Shown here: positions 1 through 21,567 of the stretch, piece after piece
Layout of the letters: each line of letters starts with the position of its first letter
How positions within the stretch are numbered: position 1 is the first letter of the stretch
DNA from: a virus
IMG/VR virus record: IMGVR_UViG_3300024333_000078
Span: 1-25,830 of that record
Strand: one strand, 5' to 3'
Length of the DNA: 25,830 bases
Translations under genes and position numbers: made by a program
The notes under the pieces: model-generated
Database searches by the model: none
What the model saw: the letters and a program-made list of their open reading frames with translations, nothing else
Told to the model about the DNA's origin: nothing

Positions 1-2
1 GG

Positions 3-404
3 AAAATCAAAAACAAGAGTAAACTAAAAAACAAGAGTAAACTCAGAGGTCGCCTGAGTAAAAATATGCGGTCTGTTCTCACTGGTTGGTCTATTGGTAG
101 AATAAACAGCAGGATTCAAATGCTAACTGAGGAGAACGGTGTCTCTCTTCGGAGAGTTCCCGCTTATGGTAATTCTATTACATGTCCATACTGTAGCCAC
201 AGTGAGAAGGCGAACCGAGCAAGTCAGGGAGAATTTGTTTGTGTGAAGTGTGGTGTTTCACTCAATGCCGATACTGTCGGTGCGACAAATTCACTGGCTC
301 GGTTCGCTTTGGGTACTTACGGTTCCCAATACAAACAAATGTTCTTGGTGAAACATCCTTATTACCACTCAGGTGATAAGGTAATTTCTTCCAATTTCAT
401 TTGA
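3..404 (+). CDS. tnpB: TnpB-like RNA-guided nuclease, C-terminal part (runs off left edge)
   Basis: The frame is open to the window edge; the first ATG is at 66, but codons upstream of it also read sensibly, so this is the 3' end of a longer gene. It has the hallmark TnpB/OrfB C-terminus: a zinc ribbon with two Cys pairs (CPYC at 183-194, CVKC at 240-251), then the RuvC-III motif NADTVGATN, whose catalytic Asp codon is at 270-272. TnpB proteins of the IS200/IS605 and IS607 groups are RNA-guided DNA nucleases that help the element persist. The Lys-rich start contains an 18-bp tandem duplication (13-25 and 31-43 are identical). The stop at 402-404 overlaps the resumed pnkp frame, and a strong hairpin (357-381) lies inside the 3' end, as expected for the right end of such an element. 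A TnpB-related phage Cas12-type nuclease cannot be excluded without the N-terminus. Confidence 0.8.
   Translation, partial: KIKNKSKLKNKSKLRGRLSKNMRSVLTGWSIGRINSRIQMLTEENGVSLRRVPAYGNSITCPYCSHSEKANRASQGEFVCVKCGVSLNADTVGATNSLARFALGTYGSQYKQMFLVKHPYYHSGDKVISSNFI
10..45 (+). repeat. 18-bp tandem duplication inside the TnpB-like gene
   Basis: The 13-mer acaagagtaaact occurs at 13-25 and again at 31-43, a period of 18 bases. It adds six residues in frame (a Lys/Asn/Ser-rich stretch) just before the RuvC/zinc-ribbon region. It looks like a recent replication-slippage duplication. Confidence 0.7.
357..381 (+). other. Candidate TnpB-element right-end hairpin / omega-RNA scaffold
   Basis: Bases 357-366 (ccttattacc) pair with 372-381 (ggtgataagg), giving 10 bp with one T-G wobble and a 5-base loop (actca). 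It lies over the end of the tnpB-like frame, directly before pnkp-like coding sequence resumes. In IS200/IS605-type elements a subterminal right-end hairpin is recognised by the transposase, and transcripts across it form the omega-RNA whose guide is the flanking DNA. Position and shape fit that role; the function is inferred and the exact element end is not determined. Confidence 0.5.
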
Positions 405-1273
405 ACGGTTTGATTGAACGTGATTTCATAGGGTATTCGTCGGCTATACGCAACGAGAGCATGCTTCTTCACGAACATGGTTACAACAACGCGGTGCTTA
501 AAGTGCTTGACGGTATCAAGGCGGCTAGTGGTTTCGGGGCTATGTCGAAGGAGCAAGGTGTATCCGAGCTTGGTAATGCGGTGTACAACACGTTCTCGTC
601 AACCATGTCGTTCGGTGTTGATAACATGATGGTGGACCACCACGGCACGATGCGTGGTTTACATTTGTTCGATAAGCAGGTTGAGCTGTATGGTTCGGAA
701 GGTGAACTCGGTATACAGGCTTTCGATATATTGAAGCTCGTGTATAAAGATGGTACGGAACGTGTCAATTACGATAACAGTTGTTTCTCGAGCATTAACG
801 ATAACTTGCACCTCGTGGTTGATTTCGATAAACCTAGCATCGCGTACAGGTCGCGTGGATGTAATGATATCACCGTGGCTTTGCGTAATGCTGACGATAT
901 ACTGGCACACGTGAACGAGTTTTACATTAGGTTGACACGCATTAACATGATGGAAGGTGTTGTTATAAAACCCCTGAACGATGAGGTATGCTTGACGAGC
1001 AATATAGCCCCTTGTTTGAAATGCAGGAACACGGAATACTTGCGTATCATCTACGGTCACGATTACGATATGGGGGAGAAGTACGATGCCCTCATCAAGA
1101 ACAAGAGTATATCTAAGAAGGTGCGATTATCTATAAGCGAGTTCAGGTTGGGTCACGACATGTTGAATATACCGTATGGTTCGCTTGATGGTGGTGATGA
1201 GTCGCAACTCGTTAAGGTATGCAAGTTGATAGGCGAGGTTGAGTCGGAGAAGGAATTGGACCCAAGATTATAA
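401..1273 (+). CDS. pnkp: Pnkp RNA-repair enzyme, C-terminal ligase domain, 5'-truncated
   Basis: This matches the C-terminal half of the adenylyltransferase (ligase) domain of bacterial Pnkp, which heals and seals broken RNA. Visible elements are a segment with the pattern of the Pnkp helical insert (LNGLIERDFIGYS), nucleotidyltransferase motif IV EGVVIKP at about residue 185, motif V around LKCRN with the Pnkp signature YLRIIYG near 213, and a C-terminus ending ELDPRL, like the usual Pnkp end. The kinase, phosphatase and motif I lysine are absent. The listed start is a TTG at 401 with no good ribosome site; the same frame is open back to 380 and the first ATG is at 461. It therefore looks like the 3' part of pnkp cut off by the TnpB element. 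hen1 follows 18 bases downstream, the usual pnkp-hen1 order. A split ligase subunit (Rnl-like) is an alternative. Confidence 0.75.
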   Translation: MNGLIERDFIGYSSAIRNESMLLHEHGYNNAVLKVLDGIKAASGFGAMSKEQGVSELGNAVYNTFSSTMSFGVDNMMVDHHGTMRGLHLFDKQVELYGSEGELGIQAFDILKLVYKDGTERVNYDNSCFSSINDNLHLVVDFDKPSIAYRSRGCNDITVALRNADDILAHVNEFYIRLTRINMMEGVVIKPLNDEVCLTSNIAPCLKCRNTEYLRIIYGHDYDMGEKYDALIKNKSISKKVRLSISEFRLGHDMLNIPYGSLDGGDESQLVKVCKLIGEVESEKELDPRL

Positions 1274-1291
1274 TATTTAAAAAATATTTTT

Positions 1292-2536
1292 ATGGCAACT
1301 ATAGTAATAAAATCTAATAACCCGGATATATCGTACGTCCTGTGTAAAAATCCTAACGGTATGCCGCTCGTCAAGAGTATCAGAGATGGTATAGGTGTTG
1401 GCTGGTACAGCGACGATACGACTTACTGCATCAATTTCAGGGATGGTAAGAGGACCATATCGTTCAAGGAATACGAGGGTCAGCAGCACGAGTACCTCAC
1501 GTACACGTCGTATAACTCTCCGTTTGCGTACCTGTCATTACTCAACGAGTTCTTGAGGGTTAATTCTACCCATAAGGATGATGTTAGCGGTTACGAGTAC
1601 GAGATGTATTTCTCGTGTGTCAGTATAAAGGGTAAGATGTGGTTGGGCATGTTGATATCCTTTATCAAGGATGCTACCGTTGAGCTAGGTGAGGTATCAG
1701 TTGGTAATTATTCTGTGCGTGTTAAATCGACGCTTGGGTTCAATGTCCTGTTGAGCATATCCCAGTTCATTATATTCATGGTTTCGGTCAGGAACGGTGA
1801 TGACATGTACATAGATGTCAATTTGAAGCGCAAGTACATCAATTTGATGAGGAAGTTGCGTGTCCCGTATTCCGTCAGGAACATATTCAAGTCCAACCTC
1901 CTTGTTGAAGGTAGTGGTCAGCTCATAAAGGAATTGCAGGAAGATTGCGATGATGTGCTATTGTTGCAGCCGGGTAATTCTAATAGCAGCAGGATGTCGT
2001 TCGTGATGGGCAACAGGTGGTTGTGTGAACGTGATGTTGTCGATATAGGTTGTGGTGAGGGTAAGTACAGTTTTAAAATAGCCGGTAGGACAGAACGTAC
2101 GGTACACGCTGTTGATATAGACGAGGATGCCATCGCTTATGTATCCACTAAAGCCAAGAACGCGAAATACGGTAATGTGGTCACGTATGATTCTGTTGAG
2201 TCGTGTGTCGATAACATGTCAACGGAGTTCGACGTGCTTGTTGTCGAGGTTATAGAACACATGGAGTACGATGACGCGGTGGATATGGTAAGAAGATTGA
2301 CGACTAACAATCTTGTAAATAAAATAATATTAACTACACCGAACAGGATGTTCAATGTTTATTACGGTATGGGTGATGGTGAGATGCGGCATGGTGATCA
2401 CAAGTTCGAGTTGTCACCCGGCGAGTTTGATGATTTCATTAAATCTGTACGTGGTGATATGAATTTTAGCCACCACGGCGTAGGTGATAAAGTGAATGAA
2501 GAATACACGACTCTCGGTTGTATATTGTACCGGTGA
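1292..2536 (+). CDS. hen1: Hen1 RNA 3'-terminal ribose 2'-O-methyltransferase
   Basis: Bacterial Hen1 methylates the 2'-OH at a cleaved RNA 3' end, before or while Pnkp ligates it, so the repaired tRNA resists re-cleavage. The C-terminal half has the SAM-binding motif DIGCGEG (near 250), the metal-binding EVIEHM (E319, E322, H323), TTPN near 350, and RHGDHKFE with H370. Together these form the Hen1 E-E-H-H Mg/Mn site. The N-terminal about 230 residues are divergent but start like Hen1-N (NPDISYVLCKNPNG); that domain activates the Pnkp ligase in characterised systems. At 414 residues it is slightly shorter than typical bacterial Hen1 (about 450-500). The ATG follows an A/T-rich spacer after pnkp. 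No catalytic residue appears to be missing, so the methyltransferase looks functional even though the partner is truncated. Confidence 0.88.
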   Translation: MATIVIKSNNPDISYVLCKNPNGMPLVKSIRDGIGVGWYSDDTTYCINFRDGKRTISFKEYEGQQHEYLTYTSYNSPFAYLSLLNEFLRVNSTHKDDVSGYEYEMYFSCVSIKGKMWLGMLISFIKDATVELGEVSVGNYSVRVKSTLGFNVLLSISQFIIFMVSVRNGDDMYIDVNLKRKYINLMRKLRVPYSVRNIFKSNLLVEGSGQLIKELQEDCDDVLLLQPGNSNSSRMSFVMGNRWLCERDVVDIGCGEGKYSFKIAGRTERTVHAVDIDEDAIAYVSTKAKNAKYGNVVTYDSVESCVDNMSTEFDVLVVEVIEHMEYDDAVDMVRRLTTNNLVNKIILTTPNRMFNVYYGMGDGEMRHGDHKFELSPGEFDDFIKSVRGDMNFSHHGVGDKVNEEYTTLGCILYR

Positions 2537-2581: not shown

Positions 2582-3097
2582 ATGATGGACGGGTTAAATG
2601 TATATGAGGATGATTTATACAGTGTCGATGTAATTGATTGTTGTGATGACGATGAATACACTCGTATCGGTTGTAAATCAACAGAAAGGGAGTGTAAGAA
2701 AATAAAAGTACATTTCGCTACTAGTATAAAGCACATAATAAACAAAACAAGGTTGAAGCAAAGGAGCGATTACGTTCTGAGTGTCGATCTTATTATGAGG
2801 AACAAGATGGAAAAGATGCCATCTGTTCTTAACTCCATGCAGCTGCTGTTGTTGAATTACGAGGTGAACAAGTTGATAAACAAGGTCATATCAAGTAACA
2901 CCACCAACTATACCGACATAATGCATATAAACTCGAACATGTCTGTTACCAGCGTTTTGAACACGGCATCCTTGCTGCGTAGTACTTACAAGAATGTCAA
3001 CTTCACGTTTACCGTTTACCATGATCTGGAAGAAGAGGATATGGCGGAGTCTATTTGCTCTCACGATAGCGTGTTTAGTAAAGTGACTGTTTTATGA
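2582..3097 (+). CDS. Unknown protein downstream of hen1
   Basis: This 171-residue protein is not recognised. The first 30 residues are acidic with an unusual CCDDDE run; the rest looks mixed alpha/beta, with a Leu-rich helix near 88-105 (SMQLLLLNYEVNKLINKV) and many Asn/Ser. There is no signal peptide, membrane segment or clear catalytic motif. It starts at an ATG 45 bases after hen1, has its own TATATTTG box, and ends at a TGA two bases before a strong bidirectional terminator. It is the last gene of the plus-strand block. The context allows a role alongside RNA repair, but nothing in the sequence proves one. Confidence 0.75.
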   Translation: MMDGLNVYEDDLYSVDVIDCCDDDEYTRIGCKSTERECKKIKVHFATSIKHIINKTRLKQRSDYVLSVDLIMRNKMEKMPSVLNSMQLLLLNYEVNKLINKVISSNTTNYTDIMHINSNMSVTSVLNTASLLRSTYKNVNFTFTVYHDLEEEDMAESICSHDSVFSKVTVL

Positions 3098-6927: not shown

Positions 6928-8664
6928 CTAAACAGATGCAACAACGTTTTGCAAGCCACTCACATTAAGTGTGATGTACTGTGTCTCTGGGTGCCATCCT
7001 GCGTCAACTACTTTGTAGCGTGACTTGATGAACATTTTTGGAGAACCAGTTGACTCGCTGATAGTCTGGATGGTTTCTGCCATGATGTAAGGCATGAACT
7101 TGATACCGGGTTCTTCGTCTTTACCACGACGGCCTATAACTATCTTGCTGTCACCCCACTTAGCGTTAGGATCAACGTACACTTTCATACCGTACACTTC
7201 GCAAGATGGGAACAATTGTCCACCAGTTGCGGGTGCTTTGATGTTGAAAGGTGAGATAGAATAGTTTGATATGTCAGCCAAAGCAGCAGCTACGCGACCG
7301 TTTGTAACAACATATTCACCTGACCCCCAACGTGACCTGTGGTAAATCAAGTTGGACATCTCTGCAAGCTTGGTACCGAGTCTGCGTTGTAGTGTAGACA
7401 CATTATCGAAAGTTCCACCTGCAACTGCACCAAGATTTATTGATGCGACGTTAGCACCTTCAACGCGGTTGATGTTAGCGGTGTGTACTGATCCGAGTTC
7501 GGTAATACGTGCGGTGATTTTCTTAGACATTGTTTGTGCAAGCTCGTTGATACCGAGGTTTTCCAACATCTTGATAGCATCGAAGTTCATTACTCTGTTG
7601 AAGTCTTGAATCTGCTCAACAGTTGCCGATAGACCAACCTGGTCGGTTTCTGCCTCAACGAACTTGGTGAACATCTTGATACCCATCTGACGGTATTGTG
7701 CTTTCTCACCTTCAGCTCTGTTCATTGACAAAGGTAGGTTGATAGCATCAGTTGTAGGATCAGGGTCTGGTGTGTAGTTTCCTACCCATGGGTGTGTTTC
7801 GTTGCTAGTGGTGAAGCCAGAGATGTGGTTCTCCAATGCAGATGTCAATTGTGCTTTGTGGATATCTGCATCGACAGTTATTGCATATCCTGCAACAGGC
7901 ACGCCTGCAACATTTATGGGTGTATCAGTTACGGCTTGGATTGAATATCCATCTCCCAACGCAGCATTAATAGTGGTTGCTGAAATATCATTAACACGGA
8001 ATATAGCGTTACCATCTATACGTGACCATCCAACGAAACGTAAATCCAATTGTTCAACTGGAGTAGTAGCAGTATTGTACACTATAAAGCGTTGGTTCTT
8101 GCTGATTGCGCCAGTAGAAATAGCTGTACCGAAAGTAACACCTGTTGCAGTTGCAATAATGGTATTAGCGTTGATGCCGTTGATTGTGATGGTGAACGGA
8201 GCGAAATCAGTATCAACATTACCTCCTTGGTACACATAGTCAAGGTAAGGGATGAATCCAACTGGTGAATCCATATTGATTGTTGATACTAGGTCGAATG
8301 CTATTGTTTTAGCAGCTGCCTGGATAGAGATAGGTAACAACGATGGGAACCTGTCGCCTGAACCCGAATTAGCAACGGTTGTTTTAACAACACCGTTGTA
8401 AGGAGTTTGAAATGGTGTTGGTGCTATTGGTGCACCCATAGCAGAGATTGAACCAGGTTGTTGGAAGAACATACCGGGTGTTGTAGTCGCCTCTGTAAGG
8501 TATGTGTTGTCGAACATAGCTTGGTTATGAGCCATCTCGGCTAGGAATTTGTACTTGTCAGCACTGGTGTTGCTTTCGGTAATACCGTACTCTGATAGGA
8601 ATCCAGCCCAATCCGAGAGCATCTGCCTATCTTCACTTTTTTGAAAAATTTTCATACCTGCCAT
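6928..8664 (-). CDS. gp23: Major capsid protein, gp23-like
   Basis: This is the 578-residue head shell subunit (T4 gp23 has 521). The T4-type core pattern is clear: LLPISIQAAAKTIAFDLV followed by MDSPVG (about 107-135), and a C-terminal region with the RWGSGEYVVTNGRV strand, VYGMKVYVDP, then FMPYIMAETIQ and SRYKVV. The N-terminal propeptide is charged; a likely prohead-protease site of the Leu/Ile-x-Glu type is LTE at 56-58 before ATTTPG, with LAE at 41-43 as an alternative. The gene sits directly downstream of the protease-scaffold gene, as 21-22-23 are ordered in T4. It ends in TAG immediately followed by TAA, and a terminator follows. An HK97-fold gp24 vertex paralogue is less likely given its position. 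Confidence 0.92.
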   Translation of the reverse strand: MAGMKIFQKSEDRQMLSDWAGFLSEYGITESNTSADKYKFLAEMAHNQAMFDNTYLTEATTTPGMFFQQPGSISAMGAPIAPTPFQTPYNGVVKTTVANSGSGDRFPSLLPISIQAAAKTIAFDLVSTINMDSPVGFIPYLDYVYQGGNVDTDFAPFTITINGINANTIIATATGVTFGTAISTGAISKNQRFIVYNTATTPVEQLDLRFVGWSRIDGNAIFRVNDISATTINAALGDGYSIQAVTDTPINVAGVPVAGYAITVDADIHKAQLTSALENHISGFTTSNETHPWVGNYTPDPDPTTDAINLPLSMNRAEGEKAQYRQMGIKMFTKFVEAETDQVGLSATVEQIQDFNRVMNFDAIKMLENLGINELAQTMSKKITARITELGSVHTANINRVEGANVASINLGAVAGGTFDNVSTLQRRLGTKLAEMSNLIYHRSRWGSGEYVVTNGRVAAALADISNYSISPFNIKAPATGGQLFPSCEVYGMKVYVDPNAKWGDSKIVIGRRGKDEEPGIKFMPYIMAETIQTISESTGSPKMFIKSRYKVVDAGWHPETQYITLNVSGLQNVVASV

Positions 8665-11608: not shown

Positions 11609-12676
11609 ATGGGCGTGTTTGGTGATTGTAGTGAAGTAATCGTAATGGCTGCGCGTAGAGTTGTTAGTAATGTATTTAAATCACATTTTAAATCTAAAAC
11701 TGTCAAAGTTGGCGATCTCGTGTTGAGCTGGGATAAAAAGACTCTTATTGGTGTAAGTAATAAAAATATAGAAACAGTTACCATCCCTAGTTATGTAACT
11801 AGGATAGGTGATGATGTTTTCGATTATTGTGTTTGTTTAAAATCAATAACTATACCGTATTCTGTTACCAGTATAGGTAAATGTGCTTTCTATAATTGTT
11901 ATAGTTTAACATCTATTGTTATTCCTGATTCGGTAAAGAGTATAGGTGATTTTGCTTTCTATAATTGTTATAGTTTAACATCTATTGTTATTCCTGATTC
12001 GGTAAAGAGTATAGGTGGTTTTGCTTTTTATGGATGTAAAGGTTTAACATCTATAACTATTCCAGATTCTGTAACTAATATAGGCGGTTGTTCTATTGTT
12101 TGTGGTAAAGTTTTTCATGGATGTAAAGGTTTAACATCAATCACTATACGTGGTATCAAGTACAAAACTGTTATGGGTGATGACGGTGATTTATGCGTTT
12201 ATGACAAGTCATACAAACATGCTGTTGACCATGAAGTATTTTCTAAAATAAAAGTATATACTGGTGTAAGGTGGTTTTATGGTGTTGAAGATGGTAAAAT
12301 AAAGCTATCCGATGAACTTGTAATGGTATGTGATGAATTTAGGTCGTTGTGTGCACATGCTGATACGCTTGAACAAGCGATAGAAGATTTGATAAGGAAA
12401 TACGATACACTTAAACAAGATGTATCAAATCTTGAAGTATTAACATTAGATACAATCATAACAGAGCAAATGTATATGGATTATACGGGTGCTTGTTCTG
12501 GTGGTGTTGATAGTTTCAAGAGGTTATACAAGGAAAGGTACAAAGATGATATCAAACATAAATTAACTCTAAGAGAACTCCTACCTCTTTTGAAATCAAT
12601 AAGAAACTACAACATGCCGAGGTTGTTGTGCTGTATGGATGATGAAGCCGTGAAATTCTGGAATGAATTGGCATAA
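11609..12676 (+). CDS. BspA-type leucine-rich-repeat protein (intact paralogue)
   Basis: A 355-residue protein with four to five 23-residue LRR_5/BspA-like repeats (about residues 50-175) of the pattern LTSIVIPDSVKSIGDFAFYNCYS. An alpha-helical domain of about 180 residues with no recognised fold follows (starting TVMGDDGDLCVYDKSYKH, containing YTGACSGGVDSF and LLPLLKSI). Two neighbouring repeats are almost identical at DNA level (69-bp period). There is no signal peptide, so it appears cytoplasmic or virion-associated. It is more A/T-rich than its neighbours. A second copy of the family, with the same C-terminal domain, lies at 18728-21567 and is broken by an IS. BspA-like repeats usually mediate protein binding; the target is unknown. 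An alternative start is ATG 11645. Confidence 0.8.
   Translation: MGVFGDCSEVIVMAARRVVSNVFKSHFKSKTVKVGDLVLSWDKKTLIGVSNKNIETVTIPSYVTRIGDDVFDYCVCLKSITIPYSVTSIGKCAFYNCYSLTSIVIPDSVKSIGDFAFYNCYSLTSIVIPDSVKSIGGFAFYGCKGLTSITIPDSVTNIGGCSIVCGKVFHGCKGLTSITIRGIKYKTVMGDDGDLCVYDKSYKHAVDHEVFSKIKVYTGVRWFYGVEDGKIKLSDELVMVCDEFRSLCAHADTLEQAIEDLIRKYDTLKQDVSNLEVLTLDTIITEQMYMDYTGACSGGVDSFKRLYKERYKDDIKHKLTLRELLPLLKSIRNYNMPRLLCCMDDEAVKFWNELA
11885..12018 (+). repeat. 69-bp near-perfect tandem repeat within the LRR gene
   Basis: The sequence starting gctttctataattg at 11885 repeats at 11954 with about 65 identical bases, equal to one 23-residue LRR unit. This indicates a recent unit duplication. Confidence 0.8.
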
Positions 12677-18727: not shown

Positions 18728-19148
18728 ATGGAAATGGTAAAAGGTATTGACTTTAAATTAAGTGAAGATGGTAAAACATTGTTGCGTGTTGATAAAGATG
18801 TTGTCGAGTTTGTAATCCCAGATTCAGTAACGAGTATAGGGAATTATGCTTTTATGGATTGTGCTAGTTTAAAATCAATAACTATCCCTAGTTCTGTAAC
18901 GAGTATAGGGTATAATGCTTTTAGTGATTGTTCTAGTTTAAAATCAATAACTATCCCTAGTTCTGTAACATACATAGATAATTGCATGTTTTATGGTTGT
19001 TCTAGTTTAACATCTATTAATATCCCTAGTTCTGTTACCGAAATAGGTGTTAGGTCTTTCGAGAGTTGTACATCTTTAAAATCAATTACCATACCTGATT
19101 ATGTAACTAGGATAAATTATAGTGCTTTTAGTAAATGTGCTAATTTAG
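18728..19148 (+). pseudogene. LRR (BspA-like) protein, 5' part, interrupted by IS
   Basis: The first 140 residues of the second LRR paralogue: a short beta N-terminus (FKLSEDGKTLLRVD) and four to five 23-residue repeats of the LKSITIPSSVTSIGYNAF type. At 19148 the reading frame meets the IS1380-type element, and translation would run 16 further codons into the IS before stopping at 19198. Joined to 20894-21567 after removing the IS and one TTAG copy, it gives one open frame of 364 codons, similar to the intact 355-residue paralogue at 11609. A possible -7-like TACTTTCA lies just upstream. Confidence 0.85.
19145..19148 (+). repeat. Target-site duplication TTAG (left copy)
   Basis: ttag directly precedes the IS left end and is repeated at 20890-20893, directly after the right end. 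A 4-bp duplication fits the IS1380 family. Confidence 0.85.
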
Positions 19149-19165
19149 CCTGTATTATTCATAAA
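19149..19165 (+). repeat. IS1380 left terminal inverted repeat
   Basis: CCTGTATTATTCATAAA; the reverse complement of the right end reads CCTGTATTATTCACAAA, with one mismatch. Confidence 0.88.
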
Positions 19166-19203
19166 AAAAGAAGAAAAGCCATGGTATTCCGAGGATAACA
19201 TAT

Positions 19204-19211
19204 TATCTTTG
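19204..19211 (+). promoter_or_regulatory. Possible transposase promoter -7 box TATCTTTG
   Basis: An exact TAnnTTTG match lies inside the IS, 24 bases before the transposase ATG. No clear -33 TTTG is seen at the expected spacing. Confidence 0.45.
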
Positions 19212-19235
19212 AGTTGAATAAACACAAAAAACACC

Positions 19236-20609
19236 ATGAGCTTTTCAGAGAACAAGATTACAACAAAAACAGACGCAACGCCACATCCCCAGCCTCAATT
19301 GTTCGAGCTACCACCCATCGGCAAAAGACGGTTAGAGATATCATTTACAGGAGAGTACTTATCTTCTAACGGGGGATTGCTGCTACTTAAAGAGGCTGAG
19401 AAGAGGGTTGGTATCGCCAAAGCACTGAGCGACTGTATTTTGGACGGCAGGCACCCCGGCTACATAAGCCACACCCACTACGATATGACCTTCCAGCGCG
19501 TCATGCAGATAGCCGCAGGGTACGAGGATGCCAATGATTGCAACATCTTGAGGAACGACACGGTTCTCAAGATGTGCATCGACCGCGCCCCCGTGTCCGG
19601 GGCCCCGCTGGCCTCCCAGCCGACTATGTCTCGATTCGAGAACACGCCCACCAACAGGGAACTATACCGCATGGCGGAGGCCTTCCTCGACAACTTCATG
19701 GCCTCCTACCAGGCCGAGCCCGCCGTCATCATCCTCGACGCCGACGACACGAACGCCGACGTCCACGGCGGCCAGCAACTGAGCCTGTTCAACGACTATT
19801 ACGGCGAGCACTGCTTCATGCCCCTGCACATCTACGAGGGCTTCTCGCGGAAGCTGGTGACGACCATCCTCAAGCCCGGGCGGCGGAACAAATCGGCCGA
19901 CGTCTTCGCCATCATCCACCGCATCATCGTCAGGCTACGCAAGCGCTGGAAGAAGACGGTGATCATCGTCCGCGGCGACGGCCACTTCTGTAGCAAGGAG
20001 CTGATGGACTGGTCGGTGGGGCAGCCGAACACGGGCTTCCTGACCGGGCTGACAGGCAACGCCGTCCTCAACAGGGAGGTGGCCGGGATGATCAAGAGCA
20101 TGGAGGACAGGTTCGCCCACGACAAGACGCCAGCCAAGCGTTACCACTCGTTCAGCTACAAGGCCGAGAGCTGGAAGATCCAGCAGCGGGTGATAGCCAA
20201 GGTGGAGGTGAGCGAGAAGGGAACCAACGTTCGCTTCGTGGTTACCAACCTGGAGTACCGCACCCGGGCCCTGTACGAGGAGGTGTACTGCGCCCGTGGA
20301 ACCATGGAACTGTGCATCAAGGACCACAAGACCTACCTGCGGTCTGACCGCATGTCTTGCAGCGATTTCCGGGCCAACCAGTTCAGGCTATTCCTGCACT
20401 CGGCGGCCTACGTCCTGATGCACAGCCTCCAGCATTGTATGCAGGAAACCAGCAACATACCATCGCTGGTGATGAAGACCTTCAGGGAACGATACCTGAA
20501 GATTGCCACCGTGGTGCGGGAACTGAAGACCAAGGTAGTGGTCGAGTTCCCGCGTGCTTGCGTCGAGTATATCGATATCGGTAAATACCTCGCATCTCTT
20601 GGTTATTGA
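19236..20609 (+). CDS. IS1380-family transposase
   Basis: A 457-residue DDE transposase of the IS1380/DUF1670 group (RNase H fold), close in length to the family norm. Near the N-terminus is the family pattern SFTGEYLSSNGGLLLLKEAE; the catalytic acids probably lie in ILDADDTNADVHG (around 165-175), VRGDGHFC (around 247) and RGTMELCIKDHKT (around 350-362). It cuts and pastes the element at the CCTG termini. Codon use is rich in GCC/GAC/CTG, unlike the phage genes. The frame is intact, so the element may still be active. Confidence 0.92.
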   Translation: MSFSENKITTKTDATPHPQPQLFELPPIGKRRLEISFTGEYLSSNGGLLLLKEAEKRVGIAKALSDCILDGRHPGYISHTHYDMTFQRVMQIAAGYEDANDCNILRNDTVLKMCIDRAPVSGAPLASQPTMSRFENTPTNRELYRMAEAFLDNFMASYQAEPAVIILDADDTNADVHGGQQLSLFNDYYGEHCFMPLHIYEGFSRKLVTTILKPGRRNKSADVFAIIHRIIVRLRKRWKKTVIIVRGDGHFCSKELMDWSVGQPNTGFLTGLTGNAVLNREVAGMIKSMEDRFAHDKTPAKRYHSFSYKAESWKIQQRVIAKVEVSEKGTNVRFVVTNLEYRTRALYEEVYCARGTMELCIKDHKTYLRSDRMSCSDFRANQFRLFLHSAAYVLMHSLQHCMQETSNIPSLVMKTFRERYLKIATVVRELKTKVVVEFPRACVEYIDIGKYLASLGY

Positions 20610-20872
20610 CGAACTGCCTCTTTCAATTGATTTGTTTTCAACTATTTGTATGGTTTCCCTGGAACACCAAGAGCTTGCTGTATCCTCATTGTTAATCATT
20701 GGCGATGTTTCGACACGGTATGACTTTTTAACGAACCGGGCGTTGCGGTATTGGTAGATATTTGAACGGTGTTACAAACGGATACTAAAAATCGAGTTTT
20801 ACATACCCCCCTGAGAATCGCTCACACGCACAGGAGCGGCTGTAATGGTCGGTATAAGCCACGGAAATGGAC

Positions 20873-20889
20873 TTTGTGAATAATACAGG
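20873..20889 (-). repeat. IS1380 right terminal inverted repeat
   Basis: Inverse of 19149-19165 with one mismatch; followed directly by the second TTAG copy. Confidence 0.88.
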
Positions 20890-20893
20890 TTAG
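20890..20893 (+). repeat. Target-site duplication TTAG (right copy)
   Basis: Identical to 19145-19148. Removing one copy together with the IS restores gct-aat-tta-gaa-tca, which continues the LRR repeat in frame. Confidence 0.85.
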
Positions 20894-21567
20894 AATCAAT
20901 AATTATTCCTAATTCAGTAACTTATATAGGTAATTTTGCTTTCTATAAATGTGTTGCTTTAAAATCAATAACGATATCTGATTTATCATGTGTTATGGAT
21001 TATAATGCTTTATATTGTTGTACTGGTTTAAAATCAATAATTATATGCGGTGTTAAATATAAGACTGTAATGGGGGATGACGGTAAGTTATGTGTGTACG
21101 ATAAATCATACAACCATACTATAAGTCACGATGTTATTTCTAATATTAAAGTTTACACAGAGGTTAAATGGTTTCGTGGTATTGTAGGTACTGTCGAGTT
21201 ATCTGATGAACTCGTGATGGTATGTGATAAATCACGATCGTTGTATGCTCACGCCAGTACGCTTGAACAAGCGATTGCAGATTTGATAATGAAATACGAC
21301 ATGCTTAAACAAGATGTGTCGAATCTTAAAATACTGACGCTTGATTCCATCATAACCGAGCAGCTATACAGGGATTACACCGGTGCTTGCTCTGGTGGTG
21401 TTGATAATTTCAAGGAGTTATACAAGGAGAAATATAAAGAGGATATAAAAAGTGAACTGACTTTAAAAGAACTTCTACCATTGTTGAAGAGTATAATGAG
21501 TTACAATACACCAAGATTACTTTGTGCAATGGATGACGAATCTGTTAAGTTCTGGAACGATTTATAA
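20894..21567 (+). pseudogene. LRR (BspA-like) protein, 3' part, cut off by IS
   Basis: This is the remainder of the second LRR gene: two more repeats (SIIIPNSVTYIGNFAFYKC, then LKSITI), then the same about 180-residue C-terminal domain as the paralogue at 11609 (TVMGDDGKLCVYDKSY; YTGACSGGVDNF; LLPLLKSIM). The first ATG is at 20995, so any product made from here would lack most repeats. The separation from the 5' part is explained fully by the IS. The downstream domain has no stop or frameshift, which argues for a recent disruption. Confidence 0.85.

What the first reader, a model, noticed from the sequence alone, without database searches (positions are those of the whole stretch)
380..2536. 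Phage-borne Pnkp-Hen1 RNA repair cassette
Seen: a ligase-domain fragment with EGVVIKP, YLRIIYG and a DPRL C-terminus, 18 bases before a methyltransferase with all four Hen1 metal ligands (E319, E322, H323, H370). Known: bacterial Pnkp/Hen1 heals, seals and 2'-O-methylates ribotoxin-cut tRNA so that it resists further cleavage. Inferred: the phage uses it to defeat host anticodon-nuclease defences. This is a stronger counter than the unmarked Pnk/Rnl1 repair of T4, since the methyl mark would give lasting immunity. The divergent, short Hen1-N suggests a phage-specific branch.
Basis: partly seen in the sequence, partly recalled or inferred. Interest (0 to 1): 0.78.

Follow-up and report, generated by a model that had tools for sequence, protein, structure and literature searches.

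The report
Phage RNA-repair operon broken by TnpB
This phage carries genes of a known bacterial toolkit that mends and marks toxin-cut RNA, but a mobile TnpB element has replaced the half of the RNA-joining enzyme that holds its active site, so the toolkit as sequenced probably cannot seal RNA, although many other phages carry intact versions.

Summary
In detail: window 401-1273 encodes a Pnkp-type RNA ligase fragment and 1292-2536 a full Hen1 2'-O-methyltransferase with all four metal ligands; sequence and predicted fold both match CgHen1 of the Pnkp1-Rnl-Hen1 complex. A 99.8%-identical, 120.8-kb sibling contig supplies the missing upstream part: a 463-aa kinase-metallophosphatase, i.e. the rest of Pnkp. 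Between it and the ligase fragment lies a 1,398-bp TnpB element whose right end is window 1-409. The ligase lacks about 130 N-terminal residues, including the motif I lysine that is invariant in all 41 relatives aligned, and no other RNA ligase was found in the sibling. The cassette is therefore best read as a genuine but disrupted Pnkp-Hen1 system whose sealing step is dead, not a working counter-defence. The claimed phage-specific branch is not supported: viral Hen1s intermingle with bacterial ones. Phage Pnkp/Hen1 was already noted in XacN1 (2018). I found 30 other viral records with Hen1 next to an apparently complete ligase, including Hen1-T4Pnkp fusions, and two viral Pnkp genes split by unrelated inserts. 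Main caveats: metagenomic assembly, only two near-identical contigs, no activity data.

The parts
1..409 (+). Right part of a TnpB transposable element (full element 1,398 bp in the sibling, L003:7721-9118); encodes the C-terminal 133 residues of TnpB (ORF 3-404)
   Evidence: Pfam Cas12f1-like_TNB 1.3e-10, NCBIfam guided_TnpB 4.3e-13; boundaries from two copies in the sibling contig
380..398 (+). Right arm of a 19-nt inverted repeat near the element's ends (left arm L003:7753-7771), 95% complementary
   Evidence: exact right-end motif also in the second copy and in another virus
401..1273 (+). ORF of 290 aa; 410-1270 is the C-terminal two thirds of a Pnkp-type RNA ligase domain; N-terminal third with motif I absent
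953..973 (+). Ligase nucleotidyltransferase motif IV, EGVVIKP
   Evidence: translation; E, G, K invariant in 41 of 41 relatives
1019..1030 (+). Ligase motif V region, KCRN
   Evidence: translation; K and R invariant in 41 of 41 relatives
1292..2536 (+). Hen1 RNA 3'-terminal 2'-O-methyltransferase, 414 aa, apparently intact
2039..2062 (+). SAM-binding motif VDIGCGEG of Hen1
   Evidence: translation; G253, C254, G255 conserved
2246..2260 (+). Hen1 metal ligands E319, E322, H323 (EVIEH)
   Evidence: invariant in 22 sequences
2399..2401 (+). Hen1 metal ligand H370
   Evidence: invariant in 22 sequences

Best explanation
This is a phage Pnkp-Hen1 RNA repair operon disrupted by a TnpB transposable element. 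Its ancestral order was kinase-metallophosphatase, ligase, Hen1. The element now sits at the phosphatase-ligase boundary, and about 0.4 kb of ligase coding sequence to its right, including the catalytic lysine, is gone. In intact relatives the inferred action is that of the characterised bacterial complexes: kinase and phosphatase heal the cut RNA ends, Hen1 methylates the 3'-terminal 2'-OH, and the ligase seals. Here kinase, phosphatase and Hen1 look catalytically complete but sealing should be lost, so the operon is probably decaying or limited to end-healing. Shown: domain content, element boundaries, absent motif I, no other RNA ligase found in the sibling. Inferred: loss of activity, ancestral state, substrate.
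For: Ligase and Hen1 assignments. The sibling contig (99.8% identical over 18 kb) shows Pnkp kinase-phosphatase with motifs GPSHCGKT, DIH, GDFID, GNHE and GHI, then TnpB, then ligase fragment, then Hen1. Element boundaries are defined by two copies in the same genome sharing left end TTGAT|AACTGCATG and right end TTTGAACGGT. K-x-MGS and ELxPWxxxG are invariant or nearly so in 41 intact ligases (27 viral, 14 bacterial; the lysine 41 of 41) and absent here; the fragment resumes about 3 residues after the invariant G. VYGG-to-PW spacing is 166-180 aa in fused relatives, against 39 aa retained before the element. The sibling has no second PNKP_ligase, no A1-profile match to the missing part, no RNA_ligase family member and no RtcB; the weak T4 Rnl1 hit is an NAD-dependent DNA ligase. 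No Rfam intron. Bacterial relatives keep Hen1 beside a full kinase-phosphatase-ligase.
Against: The ligase fragment is still open over 290 codons and Hen1 is intact, as if disruption is recent or something is still selected. The TnpB stop overlaps the fragment's TTG start (TTGA), so the fragment could be translated. Both contigs are metagenomic and near-identical, so the junction rests on few assemblies, and the sibling record may be incomplete.
Confidence: 0.8

Rival explanations
1. Residual heal-and-cap system: kinase, phosphatase and Hen1 still act together, with the ligase fragment kept as the Hen1 docking partner. They produce 5'-phosphate ends and 2'-O-methylated 3' ends that are left blocked or handed to a host ligase.
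For: Pnkp and Hen1 catalytic motifs intact. In CgRnl, Hen1 contacts the insertion domain and C-terminal part, and Pnkp1 contacts E369, N375 and D379 (PMC4411300); by alignment the C-terminal contacts fall in the retained part. The fragment is an open frame with an overlapping TTGA start.
Against: Repair of cleaved tRNA needed all three proteins in vitro (PMC4411300). No known system uses a half ligase. The CgRnl K4 contact lies in the lost part.
Confidence: 0.1
2. Assembly artefact: the phage has an intact ligase, and the repeated TnpB element led the assembler to drop about 0.4 kb.
For: At least two 93-95% identical TnpB copies in the genome. The second copy also borders an apparent loss, in a Band_7 gene. 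The window contig starts inside the element.
Against: The window's TnpB part is identical to copy 1 and only 96.8% identical to copy 2, so the right junction is phased by differences. The missing segments are nowhere else in the 120.8-kb record.
Confidence: 0.1
3. One reading: a working Pnkp-Hen1 counter-defence that repairs and marks cleaved tRNA during infection, with the ligase N-terminal part or a substitute ligase encoded elsewhere in this phage.
For: Healing and methylating enzymes intact; intact cassettes in 30 other viral records; phage tRNA repair against anticodon nucleases is established for T4 (general knowledge).
Against: No N-terminal part and no other RNA ligase family in the 120.8-kb sibling.
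Confidence: 0.05

Closest known systems
Capnocytophaga gingivalis Pnkp1-Rnl-Hen1 complex (PDB 4xrp/4xru, PMC4411300)
   Same: Hen1 full-length match by sequence and fold; separate ligase polypeptide; Rnl C-terminal match
   Different: CgPnkp1 is T4Pnkp-like (PMC4411300); here the phosphatase is calcineurin-like. CgRnl is complete; here the ligase lacks motif I.
Bacterial Pnkp-Hen1 (TIGR04075/TIGR04074; Clostridium thermocellum, Anabaena)
   Same: Kinase plus calcineurin-like phosphatase plus ligase domain content and the Hen1 metal motif
   Different: Ligase split off and truncated; Hen1 70 bits and Pnkp 107.6 bits, far below the NCBIfam equivalog cut-offs of 340 and 750
Paenibacillus/Listeria Hen1 plus fused Pnkp operons (L058-L130)
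   Same: Hen1 about 27-32% identical over full length; same domains
   Different: Gene order Hen1 then Pnkp; Pnkp intact and fused
Xanthomonas phage XacN1 ORF197/ORF198, reported 2018 (PMC5852040)
   Same: Phage Hen1 next to a PNKP-type ligase
   Different: XacN1 ligase is full length with motif I; order reversed; no element
Vibrio phages RYC and vB_VpaM_sm033
   Same: Adjacent ligase then Hen1, same order as here; nearest to the window Hen1 in the tree (85/77 support)
   Different: Hen1 fused to a T4Pnkp-like kinase-HAD phosphatase; ligase intact

Membership tests
Hen1 RNA 2'-O-methyltransferase | Rossmann methyltransferase with ExxEH...H metal site | tested here: met
   E319, E322, H323, H370 invariant in 22 sequences; fold hits 4xrp and 3jwg-j
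Hen1 RNA 2'-O-methyltransferase | N-terminal ligase-activating domain (bacterial type) | tested here: met
   Pfam Hen1_N 2e-44, profile 2-205 of 222; full-length Foldseek match to 4xrp_F, E=8.7e-30, TM 0.75
Canonical bacterial Hen1 equivalog TIGR04074 | Score above curated cut-off of 340 bits | tested here: not met
   70 bits, methyltransferase part only
Hen1 RNA 2'-O-methyltransferase | 3'-terminal 2'-O-methylation activity | not testable with these tools
   needs an assay
Pnkp-type RNA ligase | PNKP_ligase C-terminal region with motifs IV and V | tested here: met
Pnkp-type RNA ligase | Motif I nucleotidyl-accepting lysine (KxMGS) and ELxPW region | tested here: not met
   the lysine is present in 41 of 41 relatives; absent here and elsewhere in the sibling record
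Pnkp/Hen1 operon | Polynucleotide kinase and phosphatase encoded with ligase and Hen1 | tested here: met
   L003:6359-7747 in the sibling contig; outside the window
Phage-specific Hen1 branch | Viral Hen1s form one clade apart from bacteria | tested here: not met
   at least 3 label changes, 0% of bootstrap trees with one; viruses interleave with Bacillota and Bacteroidota
IS200/IS605-type TnpB element | TnpB with RuvC residues and zinc ribbon, preceded by a fixed target motif | tested here: met
   both copies follow TTGAT, a motif that appears in ISDra2 TnpB papers (its role as the ISDra2 target motif is from general knowledge)
IS200/IS605-type TnpB element | tnpA transposase in or near the element | tested here: inconclusive
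   no tnpA ORF seen within the 1,398-bp element; not searched genome-wide

The most novel reading that the evidence does not exclude
The split is functional: the TnpB element supplies an overlapping start (TTGA) for a ligase fragment that no longer seals but still docks Hen1, giving a phage heal-and-2'-O-methylate system without sealing, in which cut RNA ends are made resistant rather than rejoined by the phage.
Probability: 0.07. Interest if true: 0.65.

Novelty: new member of a known kind. Interest (0 to 1): 0.38.

Why it matters
It corrects a plausible but overstated reading: this copy of the cassette is broken at the ligase. It also shows that Pnkp-Hen1 RNA repair is spread across diverse phages (30 further viral records, 5 of them isolate genomes annotated mostly as hypothetical protein, methyltransferase or polynucleotide kinase), including a Hen1-T4Pnkp fusion form. 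The Vibrio, Xanthomonas and Stenotrophomonas phages give concrete subjects for testing whether phages use 2'-O-methyl marking to resist tRNA-cutting defences. Mobile nucleases appear more than once in phage Pnkp genes.

Tried and rejected
(1) TnpB element as a self-splicing intron: Rfam found nothing over the junction, and splicing could not restore ligase residues that are absent. (2) A second RNA ligase rescuing the system: PF09414 and PF01139 gave no match; the PF09511 hit at 28.8 kb is LigA, an NAD-dependent DNA ligase, identified by its sequence. (3) Reassigned stop codon extending Pnkp through its TAG: TAG ends 7 of 55 long ORFs, so the standard code holds. (4) Single-sequence scans for close relatives found only the sibling contig; alignment queries were needed. 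(5) Megablast of 25 kb against phage records: no match. (6) Tests of selection: window and sibling differ at too few sites. (7) A related TnpB family with five copies in another virus has a different left flank and did not clarify the loss beside the element. (8) Rfam on two other split Pnkp loci: nothing.

Full report
WHAT IS THERE. The window is a 25,830-base IMG/VR virus record. ORF 401-1273 encodes 290 residues and ORF 1292-2536 encodes 414 residues, 18 bases apart on the + strand. The first matches the Pfam PNKP_ligase domain (2.8e-15), but only profile positions 257-352 of 377, and the Rnl subunit of the Capnocytophaga gingivalis Pnkp1-Rnl-Hen1 complex from residue 209 to its end (7e-17). 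The second matches Hen1_N (2e-44) and CgHen1 along its whole length (5.8e-29). An AlphaFold2 model from a 22-row alignment (mean pLDDT 89.4) hits CgHen1 chains first by fold (E 8.7e-30, TM 0.75).

THE MISSING UPSTREAM PART. A second virus contig, IMGVR_UViG_3300045146_000225 (120,792 bp), matches the window at 99.8% over 18 kb. Upstream of the shared region it encodes an SbcC/Rad50-like ATPase, then a 463-aa protein with an AAA_33 kinase domain and a calcineurin-like phosphatase domain (Metallophos 5.3e-10, TIGR04075 5.4e-31 over profile 8-403 of 851). Its Walker A, DxH, GDxxD, GNHE and GH motifs are intact. This is the kinase-phosphatase half of bacterial Pnkp.

THE LIGASE IS BROKEN BY A TnpB ELEMENT. 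Between this Pnkp half and the ligase fragment lies a full 394-aa TnpB gene (guided_TnpB 1.6e-16). A second copy with 93% identical TnpB lies elsewhere in the same contig, and comparison of the copies gives exact ends: both begin after TTGAT with AACTGCATGTTAAAT and end with TTTCATTTGAACGGT; copy 1 is 1,398 bp. A 19-nt inverted repeat lies near the ends. In window coordinates the element ends at 409, so the ORF's first three residues (MNG) are element-encoded and ligase sequence starts at residue 4. In an alignment of 41 intact ligases (27 viral, 14 bacterial), the motif I lysine (KxMGS) and the E, P, W and G of ELxPWxxxG are invariant; the window fragment starts just after that G and has neither segment. 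Relatives with fused Pnkp have 166-180 residues between the phosphatase VYGG motif and PW; here 39 remain before the element, so about 130 residues (0.4 kb) are lost. A ligase profile found no other piece in the sibling, and RNA_ligase and RtcB profiles found nothing; a weak T4 Rnl1 hit is LigA. The two contigs are identical over the ligase fragment; Hen1 differs by three amino-acid changes and one silent change, too few to judge selection.

HOW IT PROBABLY WORKS. In the characterised complex the kinase and phosphatase heal ends, Hen1 methylates the 3' end and Rnl seals; repair of cleaved tRNA needed all three proteins, and methylated product resisted colicin D (PMC4411300). Without motif I, ligase adenylation is not expected (established nucleotidyltransferase chemistry). 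The phage may still heal and methylate ends, but sealing should fail unless the host or an unseen gene supplies it. Hen1 docks on the Rnl insertion domain and C-terminal part, and the C-terminal part is retained here, so a residual role for the fragment is possible but unsupported by data.

RELATIVES. Profile scans and custom HMMs over fetched loci found 30 other viral records with Hen1 beside a ligase that reaches the N-terminal part: 5 isolate phages (XacN1; Vibrio RYC and sm033; Stenotrophomonas CM1 and RAS14) and 25 IMG/VR contigs, some near-duplicates. Forms: Hen1 plus fused kinase-phosphatase-ligase (18); kinase and ligase without a detected phosphatase domain (2); Hen1 fused to a T4Pnkp-like kinase-HAD phosphatase with a separate ligase (3: RYC, sm033, L011); Hen1 plus a separate ligase, with no fused kinase-phosphatase recognised (5); Pnkp split inside the phosphatase domain (2). 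In the last two (L018, L012) the halves meet at the same place between the DxH and GDxxD motifs with little or no residue loss; L018 has a LAGLIDADG-domain gene there and L012 a small membrane-protein gene. The Hen1 tree needs at least three virus/bacteria changes and no bootstrap tree has viruses as one clade; the window sequence sits, with weak support, by the Vibrio phages. Whether every IMG/VR contig is viral was not checked here.

NOVELTY. Phage Pnkp and Hen1 genes were reported in XacN1 (PMC5852040), though ORF197 there is only the ligase part; a putative Pnkp1-Rnl-Hen1 cluster is reported in Borgs (PMC11208441). The jumbo-phage survey PMC7824862 covers RNA repair but contains no occurrence of Hen1 in its text. 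The window copy is thus a disrupted member of a known kind. The breadth and architectural variety in phages, and the recurrent interruption of Pnkp genes, are additions.

CAVEATS. Two near-identical metagenomic contigs carry the junction. The element is repeated in the genome, which can mislead assemblers, although sequence differences phase the right junction. The sibling contig may be incomplete. No activity was measured.

Noticed in passing
G001 (sibling contig) about 13.3-15.1 kb; L046, L048: The second TnpB copy sits in a Band_7/SPFH gene that has lost its N-terminal half (Pfam profile 90-175 of 176 only) just right of the element, as the ligase did. The missing half is nowhere else in the record. 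Two copies, two similar 0.3-0.4 kb losses: unexplained.
   Followed up: partly
window 401-409 and L046 right end: In both copies the truncated downstream gene is in frame with an element-borne TTG start that overlaps the TnpB stop (TTGA), so the fragment could be re-initiated.
   Followed up: no
L018:7354-11473 and L012:7344-10280: Two viral Pnkp genes are split at the same point of the phosphatase domain, one around a LAGLIDADG-domain gene and one around an 85-aa membrane-protein ORF.
   Followed up: partly
L005:6001-8154, L006:5995-8175, L011:5986-8127: Hen1 fused to a T4Pnkp-like kinase-HAD phosphatase in one polypeptide, beside a separate ligase.
   Followed up: partly
window 18728-21567: An IS1380 transposase (19236-20609) lies between two LRR-related ORFs, the second resembling the C-terminus of the LRR protein at 11609-12676; it probably interrupts a paralogue. 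The sibling contig ends near this point.
   Followed up: no
window 2303-2394: Window and sibling Hen1 differ by three amino-acid changes close together (T338S, G361V, G368D) and one silent change; in the five-phage alignment the window alone has G where the other four have D in RHxDH.
   Followed up: partly
window 6928-8664: The major head protein is closest (31-34%) to Lak megaphages of Prevotella and one uncultured megaphage; Bacteroidota-type promoter motifs occur in the sibling. A Bacteroidota host is likely.
   Followed up: partly
window 2582-3097: A 171-aa ORF directly downstream of Hen1 on the same strand without a significant family match; possibly part of the operon.
   Followed up: no
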